DNA of 64,000 nucleotides, taken from the NCBI GenBank assembly GCA_000961585.1, contig LADN01000043.1:1-64000 (forward strand), in the 5' to 3' direction. This document shows positions 1 through 55,966 of this stretch, in pieces. Numbering within the stretch: position 1 is the first letter of the stretch; each line of letters opens with the position of its first letter. This stretch comes from Peptococcaceae bacterium BRH_c4a (GTDB lineage: Bacteria; Bacillota; Desulfotomaculia; Desulfotomaculales; Desulfocucumaceae). Both the position numbers and the translations under genes were made by a program. A model generated the notes under the pieces. That model worked only from the letters and a program-made list of their open reading frames with translations. It did no database searches and was not told the DNA's origin.

Positions 1-100
1 GGGTCGCTTTTAAAGCAGGCTGTCACTATTCTGACTCCTGAATTATGAGTTCTGAGTTCCGCCGTCTACAAGACGGCAACGCACGTCAGGGCGTTTTTTT
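1..100 (+). repeat. Tail of a composite intergenic repeat, cut by the window edge (copy 0)
   Basis: Begins inside the GGTCGCT part and runs through a diverged heptamer array (units such as TTCTGAC, TCCTGAA), then the hairpin GCCGTCTACAAGACGGC (61-77), then a GC-rich hairpin with a T-run (about 80-100). The same tail ends the full copies downstream. It abuts copy 1 directly at position 101, so two elements lie in tandem. No gene is seen in 1-536. Confidence 0.8.
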
Positions 101-551
101 ATCGTTTTAGGAAAGTATATGCCATATTAAAGTATTAAAGCGCTAAATCGCCAAAGCATTTTTATGTAGCCCAGAGTTTTTCCGGGGTCGCTCCGGGGTC
201 ACTTGAGGGTCGCTGCATTGTCGCTAATGGGTAGGTGGAGCGATTTAAGTCCGGCCTGCATAACCTCCTGCTGCAACTGTCTCTAAACTCGGTCGCCAAC
301 GGAATGCCGACCGCCTCCAACGCCGCATCCATGCGTCGATTCCGGCTTCCGGCTGCGTCCTGCAGCCGGCTCGGCATTCCGTAGGCTCGGTCGTTAAGAG
401 ACAGTAGCAGCCTCCGGTACATTCCGCACTTAAATCACTCCCCCTCACTGCATGTCGCTGTGGGGTCGCTTGAGGGTCGCTTTTAAGGCAGCCTGTCACC
501 ATTCTGGCTTCTGGATTCTGGATTCCCAAGCGCCCTTCAGGGCGTTTTTTT
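101..551 (+). repeat. Composite intergenic repeat, full copy 1
   Basis: Order of modules: an ATCGTTTTAGGAAAG start directly after a T-run; 8-bp units ending in AAAG (about 130-160); GTCGCT-type motifs at 187, 198, 209 and 220, exactly 11 bp apart; an imperfect palindrome of about 215 bp (about 231-446) whose arms share CTGTCTCT, CGGAATGCCGA and TTTAAGTCC; GTCGCT again at 454, 465 and 476; heptamers such as TCTGGAT (about 505-528); and a GCGCCC/GGGCGT hairpin with a T-run (531-551). The ORFs inside it are products of the palindrome and not credible genes. Confidence 0.85.
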
Positions 552-4103: not shown

Positions 4104-4582
4104 ATAAAATAACCGCCTTGTCGGCGGCGCCGTCTTGCAGACGGCGGAATCCAGAAGCCAGGAGCCAGAAGCCAGAATAGTGACAGCCTGCTTTAATAGC
4201 GACCCTCAAGCGACCCCACAGCGACATGCAGTGAGGGGGAGTGATTTAAGTCCGTGCGGAATGTACCGGAGGCTGCTACTGTCTCTTAACGACCGAGCCT
4301 ACGGAATGCCGAGCCGGCTGCAGGACGCAGCCGGAAGCCGGAATCGACGCAAGGATGCGGCGTTGGAGGCGGTCGGCATTCCGTTGGCGACCGAGTTTAG
4401 AGACAGTTGCAGCAGGAGGTAATGCAGGCCGGACTTAAATCGCTCCGCCTACCCATTAGCGACCATGCAGCGACCCTCAAGCGACCCTGGAGCGACCCCG
4501 GAAAAACTCTGGGCTTGCATAAAAATGCTTCAGCACTTTAGCGCTTTAATGTTTTAATGTGGCATATACTTTCCTAAACGAT
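4104..4582 (-). repeat. Composite intergenic repeat, full copy 2 (inverted)
   Basis: Same modules as copy 1 on the opposite strand. On the plus strand: hairpins at 4113-4127 and 4129-4145; heptamers CAGAAGC/CAGGAGC (about 4150-4178); AGCGAC at 4198, 4209 and 4220; the palindrome (about 4230-4455); AGCGAC at 4458, 4469, 4480 and 4491, all 11 bp apart; 8-mers ending at the spo0A terminator. It fills the whole spo0A-steA gap. Its end lies exactly against the T-run of the spo0A terminator. Confidence 0.85.
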
Positions 4583-4614
4583 AAAAAAACACCTCCACTT
4601 TAAACTGGAGGTGT
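4583..4614 (-). terminator. Rho-independent terminator of spo0A
   Basis: 9-bp perfect stem ACACCTCCA/TGGAGGTGT (4589-4597 with 4606-4614), 8-nt loop, followed on the minus strand by seven T. It sits 20 bp after the spo0A stop. Confidence 0.9.
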
Positions 4615-8983: not shown

Positions 8984-11900
8984 TTACTGTATTTCCATTT
9001 TCAAGAAAACCTCGACCACTTTGGGGTCGAAGTGCTTTCCAGCCTGCTCCCGAATGTATTCGCGCACCTTGTCATTGGGCCAACCAGAGCGGTATGGGCG
9101 GTCGGAGTGCAGTGCGTCCCATATGTCAACCACAGCGAAGATACGCGCTGCCAGCGGGATCTGTTCGCCCTTCAGCCCGCGAGGGTAGCCTGTACCGTCC
9201 CACTTTTCGTGATGGCAGTAGGGGATGTCCAAAGCTGGGCGCAGATAGTCGATGGGCAAGAGCATTTCATACGCATAGCCCGGATGGCGGCGCATGATTT
9301 CCCACTCTTCATTTGTAAGCGGGCCGGGCTTGAGCAGAATATTGTCGGGGATGCCCATCTTGCCGATGTCGTGAAGCAGCGCGCCCCGGCGCACGTGCAC
9401 CAGTTCGGCCTCACTTATCCCCATAGCCCGGGCCAGATGCAGGGTATTCTCGGTGACCCGCTGAGAGTGACCCTCGGTCTCTTTGTCGCGCAGGTCCAGA
9501 GCGCGTGACCAGCCTTCGATGGTAGCGTCGTAGGCAAGGGTAAGTTCAGTGTTGGATCGCTGCAGATCGTTAAATAGGAAAGCATTGTCTATAGCAATAG
9601 CCGCTTGTAACGCAAGGGCTTCCAGGAAATCCAGCCACTCAGGGTCAGGGTCGAGCGGGGCACGGTGGAAGATTTCCAGCACGCCCTTAATTTGCCCTTT
9701 GGCAATGAGCGGTACGCCGTAGTAGGCGATGAAATCCTCGCCCACAACCAAATGGGTTCGTGTGAAGGCTTCCCCAGCCTCGGGCAGATTTGTAATGTGT
9801 ACGATGCGTCGTTTCAAAGCGGCCCGGCCGGCATTGCCCTCGCCCATGCGCTGGCGGGAGTGCTCAATGCCTTTGGAGCGAAATCCTCGCCCGGCAGCGT
9901 ATTCCAGAGTCTGCATGTACGGGTTAAGCAGTAGGATGTCGGCAGCGTCAATGCCCAACTGGGCAATCACCTGCTCCAGTACGATGTTTAAGGTGACGCG
10001 CAGGTCCAGGCTGCCAGTGATGGCCATGTCGATGTTGCGCAAAGCTTGCAAATGTTCTGAGCGGAGCTGCGTCTCTTTAAACAGCCGGGCATTTTCCAGC
10101 GCAGCGGCTGCTTGGTGGGCGTATGTCTGGAAGAACTCAACGCGCTTCGGGGTAAAGTAGCCGGGCTGTTCGCTGTACAGCACCAGACCGCCGAAAGGCA
10201 TATCACGATTGATCAGTGGGAAGGCGGCAACACAACAGAAGCCTTCATTTAGCGCAGCCTCACGCCACGGGAGGAAGTTCGGGTCGCTGGCGATATCGGT
10301 GATGACAACGGGAGATCCATTGCGGATGGCACAACCCATTGGCCCCTGCCCGAGAACTGAATCATCCCATCGAGTGGTGATATTGACCGGGTAATTACTC
10401 TGCGGGGGGAAGTAGGTCAGTAGCCGTACACGGCCACCCTCCTCAGCGCGGCCCAGCCAGGCCAGACTTGGCCCGAAAAACTCCACGCAGGTACGGGTGA
10501 TGTCCTCAGATAATTCTTGCAGGTCAATGCTTTGCACAAGCTTCTGCGCGCTGGTGATGAGCCCGCTTAGTGTTTTCAATTGGCGTAAGTTATCGTTCAA
10601 AAGCCGGGTGTTGGCGATGGCTGACGCCACCCGATCGGCCAGGTTTTGCAAGAATACCTGGTCTTCGTTACTGTACGGGTCTCCGGGACAATCGCCCAGC
10701 AGGCACATCGATCCAATCACACGGCCTTGTATGCGCAGCGGCACAGATAGAAAGCTGTAGATACCGAATCGATCCAGATACGACCAGTATTCCGGCTTGG
10801 TCAAAGCGCGGGCCTGATCCGGAGACACAACCGGGAGGAGCATTGGCTGGCCGGTCTCTACCACGCGGCCGGCAATTCTTTCTCCTACACGCAGTGGCGC
10901 TGCGGCCAGCAGGTTATATAAAAGGGAAATCGCTTCCGGGTTTTGGTGATGAATTGCAACGGGATAAAGCCACTGCCCGTCGTCTGATAGGAGGCGGATG
11001 ACGCAGGCGCCTCCTATTAACTCTACTGTGCGCCGGACTATTGTTTCCAAAGCAGCCTTATAGTCCAAACTGGTCTCAGCCAGTGCCTGTGAGACTTCAG
11101 CCAGTACTTCAACGCGGGCAACCTCACGGCGGATATGATCTCCGACCCGCTTGCGCTCGGTGATATTCAAAAGAGACAGCACGCTCTTTTTTGATCCCGG
11201 AATCATGTTGACGGTCGCATAGACGTCTCTAACATTACCCTGTTTGTCAATGAACCGGAACTCATAGTTCTTTGGAACAGCATCGGGATTAATTCTTCGC
11301 TTATGATGATATTCTTTGATTCTCTCTAAATCATCTTTTACAATAAACTCTGTCATGCTTTTCTTGCCTTCGACAGCCTCTCTGGAGTAGCCAGAGAGGC
11401 TGTCGAATTCCGTGTTTGCCAGGGATATTGTGGTGTCTTCCTCAATTATTGCAGTGGCGGTACCGGTAGTTTCAAAGATGGTTCGATACTTGTCTTCCGA
11501 TTCCCGCAGTTTTTCCTCGGCCAGCTTGCGCTTGGTAATATCAACAATAATCCCTCTCAAACCCACAGGTTCGTTTTCATTAATAATTGGACTGAAATGT
11601 ATAACAATAGGGAATGTGCTGCCATCTTTTCTCTGTGCGGTATATTCTGTACCGCTTATATTTTCGCCGCTGAATACTCTCCTAATATTCTGATTAGCCC
11701 TATCCCGATCATCATTAATAATTAATTGAAGGGAATAAATACCTTTTTCAAAATCATTTTTCGTATAACCAAAAGATTTAAATCCGTTAGGGTTAGCAAA
11801 TGTAAGATATCCTCTTTGATCAATTTCAAAAACAGTTATCGGCAGTAAATCAACTAATTCTTTGTATTTATTCAAGCTTGCCCTCAGCGCATCTTCTTCC

Positions 11901-12406
11901 CGTTTTCGCTTGGTGATGTCTTCAAAAATATATAATCGCCCAAAATAGCGGTCGTAATCGTCGCGAATTTGTGTGGAAAAAAGCCGGATAGTCCTTCCAT
12001 CAACAAGAGGGATTTCATTCTCAACGACAGTACGGTTTTCCTCGCTTTGGAGCGGCTTGTACAAGTTTACGAACGACGGAACATCTTTCAGTAAAGATAA
12101 ACAATGGGGAATAATATCATTATTCTTCATTTCCCCATATTGCATTTGTTCTTTAAGGTGTTCTATGCCCCAAATTTCGCAAAAACAATCATTGAAGTAA
12201 AGAACAGCGTCGGTACGATTATCCACAACCAAAAACGCCAACGGTGAGGAATTGGTCATTGAGCGAAGAAGAGCGGCTTCATTCCATTGTGGTTTTTTCT
12301 CTGACCAGTTGCGATTGTTTTTCGATGCTTCCAGTTCAGTAATCTGTTGGCGTAATTCAGCCAATTCTTTTATGAGTTGATCTTTTGCTTTATCTTGGTC
12401 TTTCAT
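8984..12406 (-). CDS. Multi-sensor c-di-GMP phosphodiesterase (PAS x3, GAF x3, HD-GYP)
   Basis: 1140 residues from the ATG at 12406 (GGAGG 5 nt upstream; the in-frame GTG at 12418 is less likely). Order: a short coiled coil, three PAS/PAC units (about 45-175, 180-300, 305-425), three GAF domains (about 435-605, 625-785, 800-960), a linker, then an HD-GYP domain (about 975-1140). The HD-GYP has the metal-binding [10 protein letters not shown] and the [11 protein letters not shown] signature, so the c-di-GMP hydrolysis site looks intact. No membrane segment is seen, so it is probably a cytoplasmic sensor. The GAF-HD-GYP part resembles proteins common in Chloroflexi and other distant phyla, which could mean transfer (inference). 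A c-di-GMP riboswitch and a terminator precede it. Confidence 0.9.
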
Positions 12407-12451
12407 TTTAACCTCCACTGAAAGCCATCCTCTATCTGCTTTTTCCTATAC

Positions 12452-12485: not shown

Positions 12486-12516
12486 AAAAAATGTCACGTC
12501 ATACATGACTTATGAT

Positions 12517-12592
12517 GAAACCTGGCAATCCTACCAAAAACGGCTTAGACCCATGGCTTTGCGACCCCAGGTTTCCCTGGGTGTGCCCTGTT
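12517..12592 (-). ncRNA. Class I cyclic di-GMP riboswitch aptamer (GEMM-I)
   Basis: On the minus strand the conserved blocks follow in order: ACAGGGCACACC, a stem CAGG-GAAA-CCTG (12568-12579) with the GAAA tetraloop, GGGTCGCAAAGCC (GCAAAGCC at 12555-12562), TCTAAGCC and GGTAGG as the tetraloop-receptor arm, then closing GCCAGGT. This matches the Vc2-type GEMM-I consensus as I recall it. The third G of AGGGC fits the G20 identity linked to c-di-GMP rather than cGAMP. It controls the downstream HD-GYP phosphodiesterase gene through the terminator at 12452-12485. Confidence 0.9.
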
Positions 12593-12611
12593 TTTTATAA
12601 TCCTTTTACAT

Positions 12612-20117: not shown

Positions 20118-20159
20118 TCTATTAACACCTCATACGCTATAACTGTAGTGCTCTCCCGT

Positions 20160-20377
20160 CAGAATCCAGAATTCAGAATCCAGAATATTGACGGCATTCC
20201 TAATATGAATTCCCGCGGGTGTATTTAATTTATTTGATCAAGCAAATAAGAAATGCCCTAAGGCCATTAAATGCTTTTTACTCTCTATGGTCTATTTTGA
20301 TTTTATTAATCTTTATTTGCCTGTTAGGAAGGCTTACACATTCTGGATTCTGACTTCTGGATTCTGGATTCCGACAG
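20160..20377. repeat. Insert bracketed by inverted heptamer arrays
   Basis: The left edge carries CAGAATC-type heptamers (about 20160-20190) and the right edge TTCTGGA-type heptamers (about 20339-20374), which are reverse complements. Between them is AT-rich DNA with a 17-bp piece (about 20244-20260) matching, in reverse, a piece of repeat family B (41078-41275). The ispA-DUF21 gap contains no gene. Confidence 0.6.
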
Positions 20378-20400
20378 AATAAGGTCGGCAGTATGAGTCG

Positions 20401-29103: not shown

Positions 29104-29610
29104 TTTTATAACGCTCAGAAAAGCATATTAAGCATCAGAGCATAAAAGCACTAAAGCGCTTTTATGCAGCCCAGAGAGGTAAAATGAAACTATTCCAGCA
29201 TCCCCAGCATCCGCCTGGACTAAACCCTCCCCCTCACTGCATATCGCTTGAGGGTCGCTACATGGTCGCTAATGGGTAGGTGGAGCGATTTAAGTCCGGC
29301 CTGCATAACCTCCTGCTGCAACTGTCTCTAAACTCGGTCGCCAACGGAATGCCGACCGCCTCCAACGCCGCGTCCTTGCGTCGATTCCGGCTTCCGGCTG
29401 CGTCCTGCAGCCGGCTCGGCATTCCGTAGGCTCGGTCGTTAAGAGACAGTAGCAGCCTCCGGTACATTCCGCACGGACTTAAATCACTCCCCCTCACTGC
29501 ATGTCGCTTGAGGGTCGCTTTTAAGGCATGCTGTCACTATTCTGGCTCCTGGCTCCTGGCTTCTGAATTCCGCCGTCTGCAAGACGGCAACGCCCGTCAG
29601 GGCGTTTTTT
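29104..29610 (+). repeat. Composite intergenic repeat, copy 3 (half short-form joined to a full form)
   Basis: 8-mer block (about 29120-29165), then the right half of a short palindrome (CTGGACTAAACCCTCCCCC, about 29216), TCGCT motifs at 11-bp steps (29243, 29254, 29265), the full palindrome (about 29275-29500), GTCGCT at 29503 and 29514, heptamers (about 29540-29570), hairpin GCCGTCTGCAAGACGGC, and a final hairpin with a T-run that reaches the amaP stop codon. No gene in this gap. Confidence 0.85.
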
Positions 29611-30140
29611 TATTCCACACGCAGCTTCTGGGCAGAAATGTTTTCCACCACAACCCTGATATCATGAACCTCAATACCGGTAACTTCCAGCACTCTGTCC
29701 CTGACATGATTTTGAAGCGTATCGGATAAATGGGGGATGTTTACATCAGGCGCCACCACCGTTTTGATGCGGATGCCTATGCCGTTGGGGGCTTTTTTCA
29801 CCGAAGCCCCGGCTTCTTTAACGCCTCTTTGATCCAGGACCACCTTTTCCACCAGGGATTCTATGGCGGACAGCGCTATTCTGACCTGCCCCAGTGACCC
29901 CTCGCTTACCACAGCCTGCTTTTTGCCGGGAACTATCCCCAGCCAGGCCAGCCTTATCCCGGCCAGTATGTAAAGAGCCAGCAACCCGTACGCTATTTCA
30001 GTGAAGCCGAGCATTCCGGCTGTCTGCCGGAAAAACGCCACGGGCCACTCAAGGCCGGCCAGGACGGCGGCAGACGCCAGGGCGAATATAATGCCCGCCA
30101 TTGCAAAAATAACCAAAATTACCCTGTTAAAAGCGTTCAT
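29610..30140 (-). CDS. amaP: AmaP, membrane anchor for Asp23/Gls24
   Basis: 176 residues with two N-terminal membrane segments (about 5-27 and 48-70) followed by a soluble domain similar to Asp23/Gls24. AmaP tethers Asp23 to the membrane in staphylococci. Ribosome site GGAGGTG before ATG at 30140. The TAA stop is built from the A-run of the repeat tail that abuts it. Confidence 0.85.
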   Translation of the reverse strand: MNAFNRVILVIFAMAGIIFALASAAVLAGLEWPVAFFRQTAGMLGFTEIAYGLLALYILAGIRLAWLGIVPGKKQAVVSEGSLGQVRIALSAIESLVEKVVLDQRGVKEAGASVKKAPNGIGIRIKTVVAPDVNIPHLSDTLQNHVRDRVLEVTGIEVHDIRVVVENISAQKLRVE

Positions 30141-30199: not shown

Positions 30200-30423
30200 C
30201 TCAGGACTCAAAACGCTAAAGCCTTATCGGCCCTGGTTCCTCCGGGGTCGCTTCAGGGCCGCTCTGTGGCCGGTGGAGGGGTTTGAGTCCGATCTATTTA
30301 TCCTCCCGGCTGGACTAAAACCCCTCCCCCTAACTGCATGTCGCTTGAGGGTCGCTTTTAAGGCAGGCTGTCACCATTCTGATTCTGGCTCCTGGCTTCC
30401 CAAGCGCCCGTCAGGGCGCTTTA
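30200..30423 (+). repeat. Composite intergenic repeat, short-palindrome form
   Basis: GTCGCT-type motifs at 30247 and 30258 (11 bp), a palindrome of only about 60 bp (GGAGGGGTTTGAGTCC near 30275 with GGACTAAAACCCCTCC near 30312), GTCGCT at 30340 and 30351, heptamers (about 30378-30400), hairpin GCGCCC/GGGCGC with a T-rich tail. The outer arms match the outer arms of the long form, so the inner 150 bp are missing or were never inserted. Confidence 0.8.
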
Positions 30424-41077: not shown

Positions 41078-41275
41078 TCAGGAGACAGGAGACAGGAGTT
41101 GGCATAGGCATTTCTTATTTGCTTTTCTTAATTGGGCCAGTTAATGGGGGTTTAGATTTCAATACCAATTTCTCTGTGTCCTCTGTGGCTAAAAAACAAT
41201 TATTACATGCATTTTTTCATCCTCCGTGGTACCGTATTTTACGGCATGGGGTCTGCATTCTGTCTCCTGACAGGA
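41078..41275. repeat. Repeat family B, copy 1
   Basis: CAGGAGA heptamers (41078-41098), then TTGGCATAGGCATTTC, then a block shared almost letter for letter with 55380-55465 (including GGGCCAGTTAATGGGGG and CCAATTTCTCTGTG), then CTCTGTGGCT, and on the right the inverse heptamer TCTCCTGACAGG (about 41258-41272). It fills the aroQ-tldE gap. No gene seen. Confidence 0.75.
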
Positions 41276-41297
41276 AAGCATTACAATATTTATTGGA

Positions 41298-43590: not shown

Positions 43591-43639
43591 TGGCGGAGTC
43601 AGGAGAGTTTTCTTTCTCTGCTGAGAGTGGCTATTATAG

Positions 43640-43857
43640 CAGGCTCACACTATTCTGGCTTCTGGATTCCGCCGTCTGCAAGCCGGCAACGCCCGTCAGG
43701 GCGTTTTTTAAATCCAGAATACAGAACTCAGAACACAGGACTCAGAATAAAAAAGAAAAAGACGATAACCGATGCCCGCCGTAATAATCTTCTATCCCGG
43801 CCCGGAAGATTCTGAGTTCTGAGTCCTGTATTCCAGCCGCCCGCAGGGCGGTTTTTT
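43640..43857 (+). repeat. Two tail modules with inverted heptamer arrays
   Basis: TTCTGGC/TTCTGGA heptamers (about 43650-43668), hairpin GCCGTCTGCAAGCCGGC, hairpin ACGCCC/GGGCGT with a T-run, then CAGAATA/CAGAACT/CAGGACT units (about 43715-43750) and their reverse complement (about 43809-43835), then a last hairpin GCCGCCC/GGGCGGT with a T-run (about 43837-43857). The two heptamer arrays could fold on each other. Confidence 0.75.
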
Positions 43858-43920: not shown

Positions 43921-44439
43921 GTGTTTTGTGACGTGGCGTATATAATCTATGCGGCTACAGTCTGGACCGCTGTCTTTTTGTTTGTTGGCAGAAGGCTGGC
44001 CTATATGTGGAAGCCGGGCATCATAGGGGTCGGGCTGATGATGCTGGTGGATTATTTCGGTACAGAATATAATTTTTACAAGTATCTTGAGGGAATATTT
44101 TACCTGGGCAAACTGCCGGTATTTCATATCATCGGCACCTACGCTGTTTCCATTTTGTATTTTAATTGGCTGCCTCCCCGGTGGAGCGGCAGAGCGCTTT
44201 ACATTATCTATGTATCCACCCTTTTACTGGGGCTTGAAGCATATATGCATTTTACGGGAGCCCTTGTCTACCCGCAGTGGAAGCTATGGTACAGCTATTT
44301 TCTTGTTGCGTCCGGGCTTGTCCTGATTACCTATCTGTCAGATAAACTGGGTCTGCTGAATAAGATAACCGCCTTGCCGGCGGTGCCGTCTTGCAGACGG
44401 CGGAATCCAGAAGCCAGAATAAGCAAGCGTGGCCCTTAG
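43921..44439 (+). CDS. CBO0543-like polytopic membrane protein
   Basis: 172 residues, about five membrane segments in the first 145 residues. Looks like the CBO0543 family of small membrane proteins of Firmicutes, function unknown. GTG start. From about residue 148 on, the sequence (ALPAVPSCRRRNPEARISK) is a translation of the repeat tail module, so the original C-terminus was replaced or extended by repeat DNA. A homologous gene lies at 48162-48638. Confidence 0.65.
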   Translation: MFCDVAYIIYAATVWTAVFLFVGRRLAYMWKPGIIGVGLMMLVDYFGTEYNFYKYLEGIFYLGKLPVFHIIGTYAVSILYFNWLPPRWSGRALYIIYVSTLLLGLEAYMHFTGALVYPQWKLWYSYFLVASGLVLITYLSDKLGLLNKITALPAVPSCRRRNPEARISKRGP

Positions 44440-44470
44440 GCGACATGCATGAGAAGGGAGGGGTAGTTCA
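44364..44470 (-). repeat. Tail module of the composite repeat inside and after a coding region
   Basis: Plus-strand order CCGCC/GGCGG hairpin, GCCGTCTTGCAGACGGC, heptamers AATCCAGAAGCCAGAA, then a degraded GTGGCCCTTAGGCGACATGCA block. The first 75 bp form the 3' end of the CBO0543-like gene. From here to 44541 I see nothing else. Confidence 0.7.
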
Positions 44471-55351: not shown

Positions 55352-55518
55352 GTCAGAATACAGGAGACAGGAGACAGAAGTTGGCCAAGGCATTCCTTGT
55401 TTGCTTTTCTTAATTGGGCCAGTTAATGGGGGTTTAGATTTCAAATACCAATTTCTCTGTTTTCTCTATGGCTCATTCTGAATTTTGAATTCCAGCCAGC
55501 CCGCAGGGCTTCTTTTTT
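55352..55518. repeat. Repeat family B, copy 2
   Basis: Heptamers CAGAATA, CAGGAGA, CAGGAGA, CAGAAGT (55355-55382), then the conserved block shared with 41098-41185 and the degenerate TCTCTATGGCTCATTCTG end, then inverse-type units and a hairpin AGCCC/GGGCT with a T-run (about 55496-55518). Copy 4 of the composite repeat begins immediately after the T-run. Confidence 0.75.
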
Positions 55519-55966
55519 ATCGTTTAGGAAAGTATATGACACATTAAAGCATTAAAGCGCTGAAGTACTGAAGCACCAAAGCATTTTTATGCAAGCCCAG
55601 AGTTTTTCCGGGGTCGCTTCGGGGTCGCTAACGGGTAGGGAAAGTGATTTGAACCTGGGCTGCATAAACCTCCTGCTGCAACAGTCTCTAAACTCGGTCG
55701 CCAACGGAATGCCGACCGCCTCCAACGCCGCATCCTTGCGTCGATTCCGGCTACCGGCTGCGTCCTGCAGCCGGTTCGGCAGTCCGTAGGCTCGGTCGTT
55801 AAGAGACAGTAGCAGCCTCCGGTAAATTCCGCCCAGAACCAAAAATCACTCCCCCCCACTGCATGTCGCTGTGGGGTCGCTTGAGGGTCGCTTTTAAGGC
55901 AGCCTGTCACAATTCTGGATTCTGGCTTCTGGATTCTGGATTCCCAAGCGCCCTTCAGGGCGTTTA
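55519..55966 (+). repeat. Composite intergenic repeat, full copy 4
   Basis: 8-mer block (ATTAAAGC, GCTGAAGT, ACTGAAGC, ACCAAAGC near 55545-55582), GTCGCT at 55613 and 55624, palindrome (about 55632-55862), GTCGCT at 55865, 55876 and 55887, heptamers (about 55912-55943), hairpin GCGCCC/GGGCGT with a T-rich tail ending at the ahbB stop. The two left GTCGCT motifs are fewer than in copies 1 and 2. Confidence 0.85.

What the first reader, a model, noticed from the sequence alone, without database searches (positions are those of the whole stretch)
101..551. A modular composite repeat occupies many intergenic gaps
Full copies at 101-551, 4104-4582, 29104-29610 and 55519-55966, a short form at 30200-30423, and a tail at 1-100 share the same order of modules: 8-mers, 11-bp motif array, palindrome, 11-bp array, 7-mers, terminator-like hairpins. 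I know no named element with this build. It has no transposase gene, so it could be a MITE-like passenger, a structured RNA, or a DNA-architecture element. The conserved module order across copies with different arm content argues against random accumulation.
Basis: seen in the sequence. Interest (0 to 1): 0.75.

Follow-up and report, generated by a model that had tools for sequence, protein, structure and literature searches.

The report
Terminator-seeking mobile repeat with TwoAYGGAY core
The repeated block is a small gene-less jumping DNA element, present in about a hundred copies in this genome, that inserts next to the 'stop transcription' hairpins after genes; its centre is a structure long filed as a mystery RNA (TwoAYGGAY), and in related bacteria the same structure sits in elements whose ends match a known jumping gene (IS1182 family) that also targets those hairpins.

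Summary
The window has four near-complete copies, a reduced copy, and a fifth copy cut by the contig start (bases 1-100). The genome has at least 42 near-full copies by DNA and 115 matches to Rfam RF01731 (TwoAYGGAY), which is the central palindrome. The repeat is mobile: congeners lack it at two orthologous sites, the 5' and 3' boundaries are sharp, and copies run from 49 to 538 bp. Insertions sit in A/T-runs beside intrinsic terminators, with one fixed end toward the terminator. In relatives G013 and G017 the TwoAYGGAY palindrome lies in a ~300-bp MITE with ends CAGACTGnnGACAAA, flanked by duplications of a complete terminator hairpin. Yersinia YPAL elements share those ends and targets. An autonomous IS1182-family IS in G462 has the same ends and duplicates whole terminator hairpins. 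So TwoAYGGAY and YPAL are best read as one MITE family, probably served by IS1182-type transposases; I found no paper making this link. The window's composite looks like a derivative that has absorbed a terminator hairpin and grown short tandem repeats. Its own mobilising enzyme is not identified, and its match to the IS1182 ends is only suggestive. Whether the conserved GGA-loop hairpins act as RNA is unproven.

The parts
1..95 (-). 5' part of another copy (11-mer, TIR-L relic 20-33, 7-mers, hairpins 61-77 and 80-95), truncated by the contig start and joined head-to-tail to the copy at 102-551
   Evidence: (window = C37:1-64000)
102..551 (-). composite element copy 1 (oriented by the GGA loops of TwoAYGGAY)
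104..121 (-). conserved 3' end motif CATATACTTTCCTWAACG
262..419 (-). TwoAYGGAY (RF01731) core, 50.4 bits (gathering score 43)
493..506 (-). possible left TIR relic CAGAATGGTGACAG
   Evidence: compared by eye with IS1182/MITE TIR CAGACTGnnGACAAA
501..521 (-). 7-mer tandem repeats (CCAGAAT type)
531..546 (-). 5' terminator-type hairpin with T-run read on + strand (GCGCCCTTCAGGGCGTTTTTTTAT)
4107..4583 (+). composite element copy 2 between steA-like gene and spo0A; absent at the orthologous site of two congeners
4264..4421 (+). TwoAYGGAY core, 47.1 bits
4563..4580 (+). 3' end motif, joined to the A-run of the spo0A terminator
29110..29612 (-). composite element copy 3; target CACCCCTTTTTAT empty in G001 and free of the element in G002, G003, G005
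29307..29464 (-). TwoAYGGAY core, 47.6 bits
30200..30423 (-). reduced copy without the palindrome core (hairpin 30405-30420, TIR-L relic 30368-30381)
55519..55964 (-). composite element copy 4
55667..55824 (-). TwoAYGGAY core, 49 bits
22725..22815 (+). solitary 5'-end piece (two hairpins, 7-mers)
43622..43709 (-). solitary 5'-end piece
44363..44452 (+). solitary 5'-end piece

Best explanation
The block is a non-autonomous mobile element. Its core is the TwoAYGGAY palindrome (RF01731). In related genomes that palindrome is the body of a MITE whose ends (CAGACTGnnGACAAA) equal those of an IS1182-family IS; that IS supplies the likely transposase. It recognises intrinsic-terminator stem-loops, cuts symmetrically outside the stem-loop, and duplicates the whole hairpin, so each flank keeps one. 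SHOWN: in relatives, the shared ends, the hairpin-sized duplications, and the autonomous IS; in this genome, high copy number, empty sites, terminator targeting with fixed polarity, and chaining of copies. INFERRED: that the IS1182-type transposase moves the MITEs in trans; that it acts on the extruded hairpin or cruciform; that in the window's lineage the MITE absorbed a target hairpin at its 5' side and gained 7-, 8- and 11-bp tandem repeats, becoming a larger unit with new outer ends (hairpin + T-run; CATATACTTTCCTWAACG). This unit now inserts directly at terminator T-runs without a detectable duplication, moved by an enzyme not yet identified. The two GGA-loop hairpins are kept by selection on structure, possibly as RNA.
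For: RF01731 in all four window copies; 115 genome matches, 0 in 14 controls. Empty orthologous sites in congeners G001 and G002 (steA-spo0A) and in G001, G002, G003, G005 (29104 locus). 57 copies with both edges, 49-538 bp; 21/57 are followed directly by another copy's hairpin; the other 36 have hairpins at the 3' flank (median -11.2 vs -5.4 kcal/mol at control A-runs, p=1.4e-5), the 5' flank does not. G017 18/20 and G013 8/10 flanking repeats beyond 99.5% of mismatched pairs. The duplications are the dyads themselves: 19-32 nt, 26/29 centred within 1 nt, length vs dyad span r=0.92. IS1182-family IS (NF033551 446 vs cut-off 270), 1607 bp, 5 copies, same ends, each in a hairpin duplication. 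E. coli relative of YPAL with the same layout. Stems covary: 14/16 predicted pairs with double changes.
Against: The window copies lack clear TIRs and show no copy-specific duplication (edge similarity 5.81 within vs 5.76 between copies); the relic TIRs (CAGAATGGTGACAG; AAAAACTCTG) are weak, judged by eye and not tested statistically. No IS1182 transposase close to the G016 type was found in G000 (one 51-aa PF13751 fragment). G016, G002 and the mixed relatives gave no detectable duplications. YPAL scores only 16 bits with RF01731, so its link rests on ends, layout and loops. No transposition was observed.
Confidence: 0.72

Rival explanations
1. TwoAYGGAY is primarily a functional structured RNA (for example a CsrA-binding RNA, as proposed in PMC4333381) and the repeats are host regulatory RNAs copied because they are useful.
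For: RF01731 match; covariation in stems; GGA invariant in loop 2 in 21/21 representatives and present in loop 1 in 18/21; stem mismatches on the GGA strand favour G-U over A-C 28:14 and G-A over U-C; most copies abut a gene 3' end, so co-transcription is likely.
Against: Copy number and position vary wildly between species; empty sites in congeners; IS-type ends and hairpin duplications in relatives; forms lacking the core also occur at separate sites; no orientation bias to flanking genes in G000. The strand asymmetry is weak (nominal p about 0.04) and would also fit single-stranded DNA.
Confidence: 0.2
2. The G000 composite moves by a single-strand, no-duplication mechanism (IS200/IS605 HUH type) with the cleavage site TTTTAT.
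For: No TIR and no duplication; fixed polarity; TTTTAT at both edges; hairpin at one end; at the 29104 locus the G001 site CACCCCTTTTTAT|TCAACACGC matches the filled flanks. A Y1_Tnp gene is present.
Against: The Y1_Tnp loci do not carry the composite's ends; they look like a REP-associated (RAYT-like) gene and an IS605-type remnant. No conserved subterminal hairpin at the CGTTWAGG end.
Confidence: 0.2
3. A retroelement of group IIC-intron type, which also inserts behind terminator T-runs in one orientation.
For: Same target logic and polarity; reverse-transcriptase and group II intron domain V fragments exist in the genome.
Against: No group II catalytic domain in the window or element; ends are not intron-like; no 5' truncation series, but internal deletions with both ends kept.
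Confidence: 0.07
4. The blocks are ordinary bidirectional terminators or mosaics of several unrelated small repeats (REP/BIME-like) accumulated by chance.
For: Modules such as the 7-mers and hairpins also occur apart from the palindrome; a REP-like GGGGACA module is inserted in several copies.
Against: Conserved module order and sharp common 5' and 3' ends in dozens of copies, 88-100% identity over whole copies, clean empty sites.
Confidence: 0.04

Closest known systems
Rfam RF01731 TwoAYGGAY RNA (Weinberg 2010, PMC2864571)
   Same: The central palindrome scores above the gathering threshold in all four window copies, with two GGA-loop hairpins inside a long stem
   Different: Weinberg listed it as a probable RNA, not cis-regulatory, function unknown; here it is shown to be the core of dispersed mobile elements
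YPAL / RU-2 (Yersinia palindromic sequence, De Gregorio 2006; PMC2759123, PMC2229807)
   Same: ~168-bp repeat; its ends (ttCAGACTGCTGACAAAC... / ...CTTTGTCAATAACCTC) equal those of the G013/G017 TwoAYGGAY elements in the same orientation; two GGA-loop hairpins; 3-26-bp duplications spanning dyads; empty/filled sites reported
   Different: Core sequence too diverged for RF01731 (16 bits; YPAL hits RF02770 Ysr224 instead); no tandem repeats, no absorbed hairpin; far shorter than the window's composite
IS1182-family insertion sequences (incl. IS1272/TnSha1, Furi 2016, PMC4923244)
   Same: G462 IS (1607 bp, NF033551) has the MITE's ends and inserts at terminator hairpins
   Different: Autonomous; duplicates the whole hairpin here, whereas IS1272/TnSha1 is reported to delete part of the hairpin without duplication
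Group IIC introns
   Same: Also insert just behind terminator T-runs in fixed orientation (established knowledge, not from a tool)
   Different: No catalytic domain or RT in the element; ends not intron-like
REP/BIME with RAYT transposases
   Same: Dispersed palindromic intergenic repeats
   Different: REPs are 20-40 bp; this unit is ~450-500 bp and has other ends

Membership tests
RF01731 TwoAYGGAY | Covariance-model score at or above 43 bits | tested here: met
   47.1-50.4 bits in four window copies
RF01731 TwoAYGGAY | Two hairpins with AYGGAY-like loops in a long stem | tested here: met
   Loops AGGAC and AAGGAU/AUGGAU in G000; GGA in loop 2 in 21/21, loop 1 in 18/21 aligned cores
YPAL-type MITE | TIR CAGACTGnnGACAAA at both ends | tested here: inconclusive
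   Met in G013, G017, G090, E. coli L199; in the window only a weak relic CAGAATGGTGACAG plus ...AAAAACTCTG
YPAL-type MITE | Duplication spanning a dyad/terminator | tested here: not met
   Met in G013/G017; window-type copies show no copy-specific duplication
YPAL-type MITE | Insertion at terminators near gene 3' ends, empty sites in relatives | tested here: met
IS1182-family derivative | Ends identical to an autonomous IS1182 element | tested here: inconclusive
   Met for TwoAYGGAY elements of relatives vs G462 IS; not for the window's outer ends
IS1182-family derivative | Transposition in trans by the transposase | not testable with these tools
   needs a mobility assay
IS200/IS605 PATE | Ends shared with a TnpA (Y1) element | tested here: not met
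   Two Y1_Tnp loci lack the ends
Group IIC intron | Group II domain V / RT in the element | tested here: not met
   No RF00029 hit in the window; no ORF in the element
REP/BIME | 20-40-bp palindromic unit with RAYT | tested here: not met
   Full copies are mostly ~390-540 bp with sharp other ends
CsrA-binding RNA | Binds CsrA through ANGGA loops | not testable with these tools
   loops conserved; binding not assayed

The most novel reading that the evidence does not exclude
In this lineage an IS1182-type MITE has turned into a new, larger transposable unit by absorbing a target terminator hairpin into itself. It now carries a portable intrinsic terminator, seeks terminator T-runs with one fixed end, re-creates its own target with every insertion (hence head-to-tail chains), and is moved by an enzyme of a kind not yet linked to such elements.
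Probability: 0.35. Interest if true: 0.78.

Novelty: new variant of a known kind. Interest (0 to 1): 0.62.

Why it matters
It turns an orphan 'structured RNA' family (TwoAYGGAY) into a mobile-DNA family, joins it with Yersinia YPAL across phyla, and names a candidate transposase family (IS1182), so the question 'what moves YPAL/TwoAYGGAY' becomes directly testable. The duplications equal the terminator dyad (19-32 nt, centred) rather than having a fixed length, which points to a transposition target defined by DNA shape. The conserved GGA-loop hairpins inside a selfish element are a separate puzzle.

Tried and rejected
(1) Short duplication at the edges of the G000 composite: rejected, edge similarity 5.81 within vs 5.76 between copies. 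(2) Y1_Tnp (IS200/IS605, RAYT-like) as carrier: loci do not bear the ends. (3) Group II intron as carrier: only fragments elsewhere, no shared ends noted. (4) Autonomous copy with the composite's ends: among 20 fetched regions around end-only sites I found truncated, core-less (about 166-187 bp) and ends-only (49 bp) forms and no transposase-bearing unit. (5) YPAL as a sequence-level RF01731 member: only 16 bits, so homology is argued from ends and layout. (6) Orientation bias toward flanking genes in G000: none (39 vs 41 genes running toward the two sides). (7) Hairpin duplications in G016, G002 and mixed relatives: none detected. (10) De Gregorio 2006 is not held; YPAL facts are taken from PMC2759123 and PMC2229807.

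Full report
OBSERVATION. Read in the orientation given by the RNA model, each full copy runs: A-run + hairpin (CGCCCTGACGGGCG or CCGCCTTGTCGGCGG), optional second hairpin (GCCGTCTTGCAGACGGC), tandem 7-mers (CCAGAAT etc.), GTGACAG..., 11-mers (AGCGACCCnnn), long palindrome, 11-mers, AAAAACTCTG, tandem 8-mers (GCTTTAAT etc.), and the end CATATACTTTCCTWAACG. The palindrome is Rfam RF01731 TwoAYGGAY in all four full copies at 47-50 bits, cut-off 43. The window begins at base 1 of contig C37, so the 'tail' at 1-100 is a copy cut by the assembly.

GENOME. The genome has at least 42 near-full copies by DNA and 115 TwoAYGGAY matches, against none in 14 control genomes. The end motif occurs 138 times (57 + 81) at up to 2 mismatches, against 1 for the reversed pattern. 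Many contigs start or end inside copies, as expected of a repeat that breaks assemblies.

MOBILITY. At two loci of the window the orthologous site in relatives is empty. Between steA and spo0A, congeners G001 and G002 have only a short terminator (A-run, CTGGCCTGAAGCCAG, T-run), where G000 has the element joined to the A-run of the spo0A terminator. At 29104, G001 reads CACCCCTTTTTAT|TCAACACGC; G000 has the element after CACCCCTTTTTAT, and its last bases are again TTTTTAT; G002, G003 and G005 also lack it. Of 57 non-redundant copies with both edges, lengths run from 49 to 538 bp; the smallest holds only the two ends, and other reduced forms lack the palindrome. No copy-specific duplication is seen at the edges (5.81 vs 5.76 matches of 8). 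At the 3' edge, 21 of 57 copies run straight into another copy's hairpin, and the other 36 are followed by stable hairpins far more than control A-runs (median -11.2 vs -5.4 kcal/mol, p=1.4e-5); the 5' flank is like the control. So the CGTTWAGG end is joined to a terminator T-run with fixed polarity, and each copy ends in a terminator of its own, which explains the chains.

RELATIVES SHOW THE ANCESTRAL BUILD. TwoAYGGAY occurs in 15 of 60 relatives and 30 of 398 genomes of the phylum, usually in several copies. In G017 and G013 it lies in a ~300-bp element with imperfect terminal inverted repeats CAGACTGnnGACAAA, and immediately outside both ends stands the same locus-specific terminator hairpin. 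Against 2000 mismatched flank pairs, 18 of 20 (G017) and 8 of 10 (G013) exceed the 99.5% quantile; G090, outside the order, has one too. In 29 cases from six genomes (including IS copies) the duplicated segment is 19-32 nt, folds at -13.9 kcal/mol on average (shuffled -3.4), is centred on its dyad within 1 nt in 26, and its length tracks the dyad span (r=0.92). The cuts are therefore set by the hairpin, not by a fixed stagger; insertion at an extruded hairpin or cruciform is the simplest reading (inference).

LINK TO YPAL. The published Yersinia YPAL/RU-2 sequence (PMC2759123, read) starts ttCAGACTGCTGACAAAC and ends CTTTGTCAATAACCTCa. G013 starts CAGACTGAAGACAAAC and ends CTTTGTCAACAACCTG, in the same orientation relative to the GGA loops. 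YPAL duplications of 3-26 bp spanning dyads and empty sites are reported (PMC2229807). A YPAL relative in E. coli (L199) is flanked by CAGGGGC...GCCCCTG hairpins on both sides. By covariance model YPAL hits RF02770 Ysr224 and only weakly RF01731 (16 bits), so the kinship rests on ends, layout and loops. A search for papers combining these names found none.

THE LIKELY ENZYME. G462 carries five 99.8% identical copies of a 1607-bp IS with the ends CAGACTGAAGACAAA...TTTGTCGACACTCTG and a 513-aa transposase (NF033551 IS1182 family, 446 bits vs cut-off 270). Each copy sits in a duplication of a terminator hairpin (21-27 nt), perfect in all five. G039 has a related IS with duplications of 21, 25 and 32 nt. 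G016 holds IS1182-type copies with the end CAGAGTGTTGACAAA; at two different sites they share the same hairpin just outside the end, which hints that a hairpin can become part of the moving unit. IS1272/TnSha1 of the same family is known to insert at terminator hairpins, with hairpin deletion and without duplication (PMC4923244).

THE WINDOW'S FORM. The composite could have arisen from such a MITE: next to its 7-mers stands CAGAATGGTGACAG, resembling the left end, and AAAAACTCTG lies where the right end would be; the 7-mers look like tandem copies of the terminal bases, and the 5' hairpin would be an absorbed target terminator. These matches were judged by eye and were not tested statistically. 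The present outer ends are new and the enzyme that moves them is unknown; Y1_Tnp and group II intron fragments exist in the genome but share no ends.

STRUCTURE OR RNA? Across 21 cores the stems covary (14 of 16 predicted pairs with double changes); GGA is invariant in one loop and present in 18 of 21 in the other. On the GGA strand G-U mismatches exceed A-C 28 to 14, and G-A far exceeds U-C. This favours selection on a single strand, as RNA or as single-stranded DNA, but the test is weak. Gardner and colleagues' CsrA proposal (PMC4333381) remains open. In G000, 51 of 59 copies with both neighbours called have a gene 3' end on at least one side, without orientation bias, so transcripts of both strands are likely.

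VERDICT. A real, mobile, non-autonomous element; a new variant of a known kind. The strongest new claims are the joining of TwoAYGGAY with YPAL, the IS1182-family partner, and the hairpin-defined target duplication. The weakest link is the origin and the present mover of the window's own composite.

Noticed in passing
L036, L054, L035, L066, L080, L049 (edges): A REP-like module AAGGAAAGGGGACACACCTCTCT...AGAGGAATGTCCCCGATGC is inserted inside or beside the element's 5' hairpin; the Y1_Tnp gene at G000:C77:38488 (RAYT-like) may be its partner.
   Followed up: partly
window 20146-20380, 41079-41280, 55361-55444: At least two other small repeat families carry the same kind of 7-mer arrays (CAGAATC / CAGGAGA), at one or both ends, around different bodies.
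   Followed up: no
L088 (G000:C91:66937-68295): Three copies of the element in tandem with a 442-bp period: a local tandem amplification rather than separate insertions.
   Followed up: no
G013:C1:407539-407597 and 928122-928175: Pairs of TIRs only 54-59 bp apart: very short derivatives holding little more than the two ends.
   Followed up: no
L199:1557-1663 (-), Rfam RF02770: The 'Yersinia sRNA 224' family is part of the YPAL repeat read on the opposite strand, so this sRNA family is repeat-derived.
   Followed up: partly
L229 and L234 (G016:C3 and C6 starts): Two IS1182-type copies at different sites share the same hairpin (AGCCACTCCTACACGGAGTGGCT) just outside the end, suggesting hairpin capture by the moving unit.
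   Followed up: partly
window 12513-12597 (-): c-di-GMP-I riboswitch, 70 bits, just upstream of the large ORF at 8984-12418 (-).
   Followed up: no
L035, L045, L062, L072: Some copies have a different 3' end (GTTATCCACAATTYTCGAAAAGCATAATTTCCTATAC), a second end type of the same composite.
   Followed up: no
G002:C16:71846-72005 (L094): One congener TwoAYGGAY copy is flanked by different inverted repeats (TAATTACTCAACTTTCGCAC), as if carried by another transposon family.
   Followed up: no
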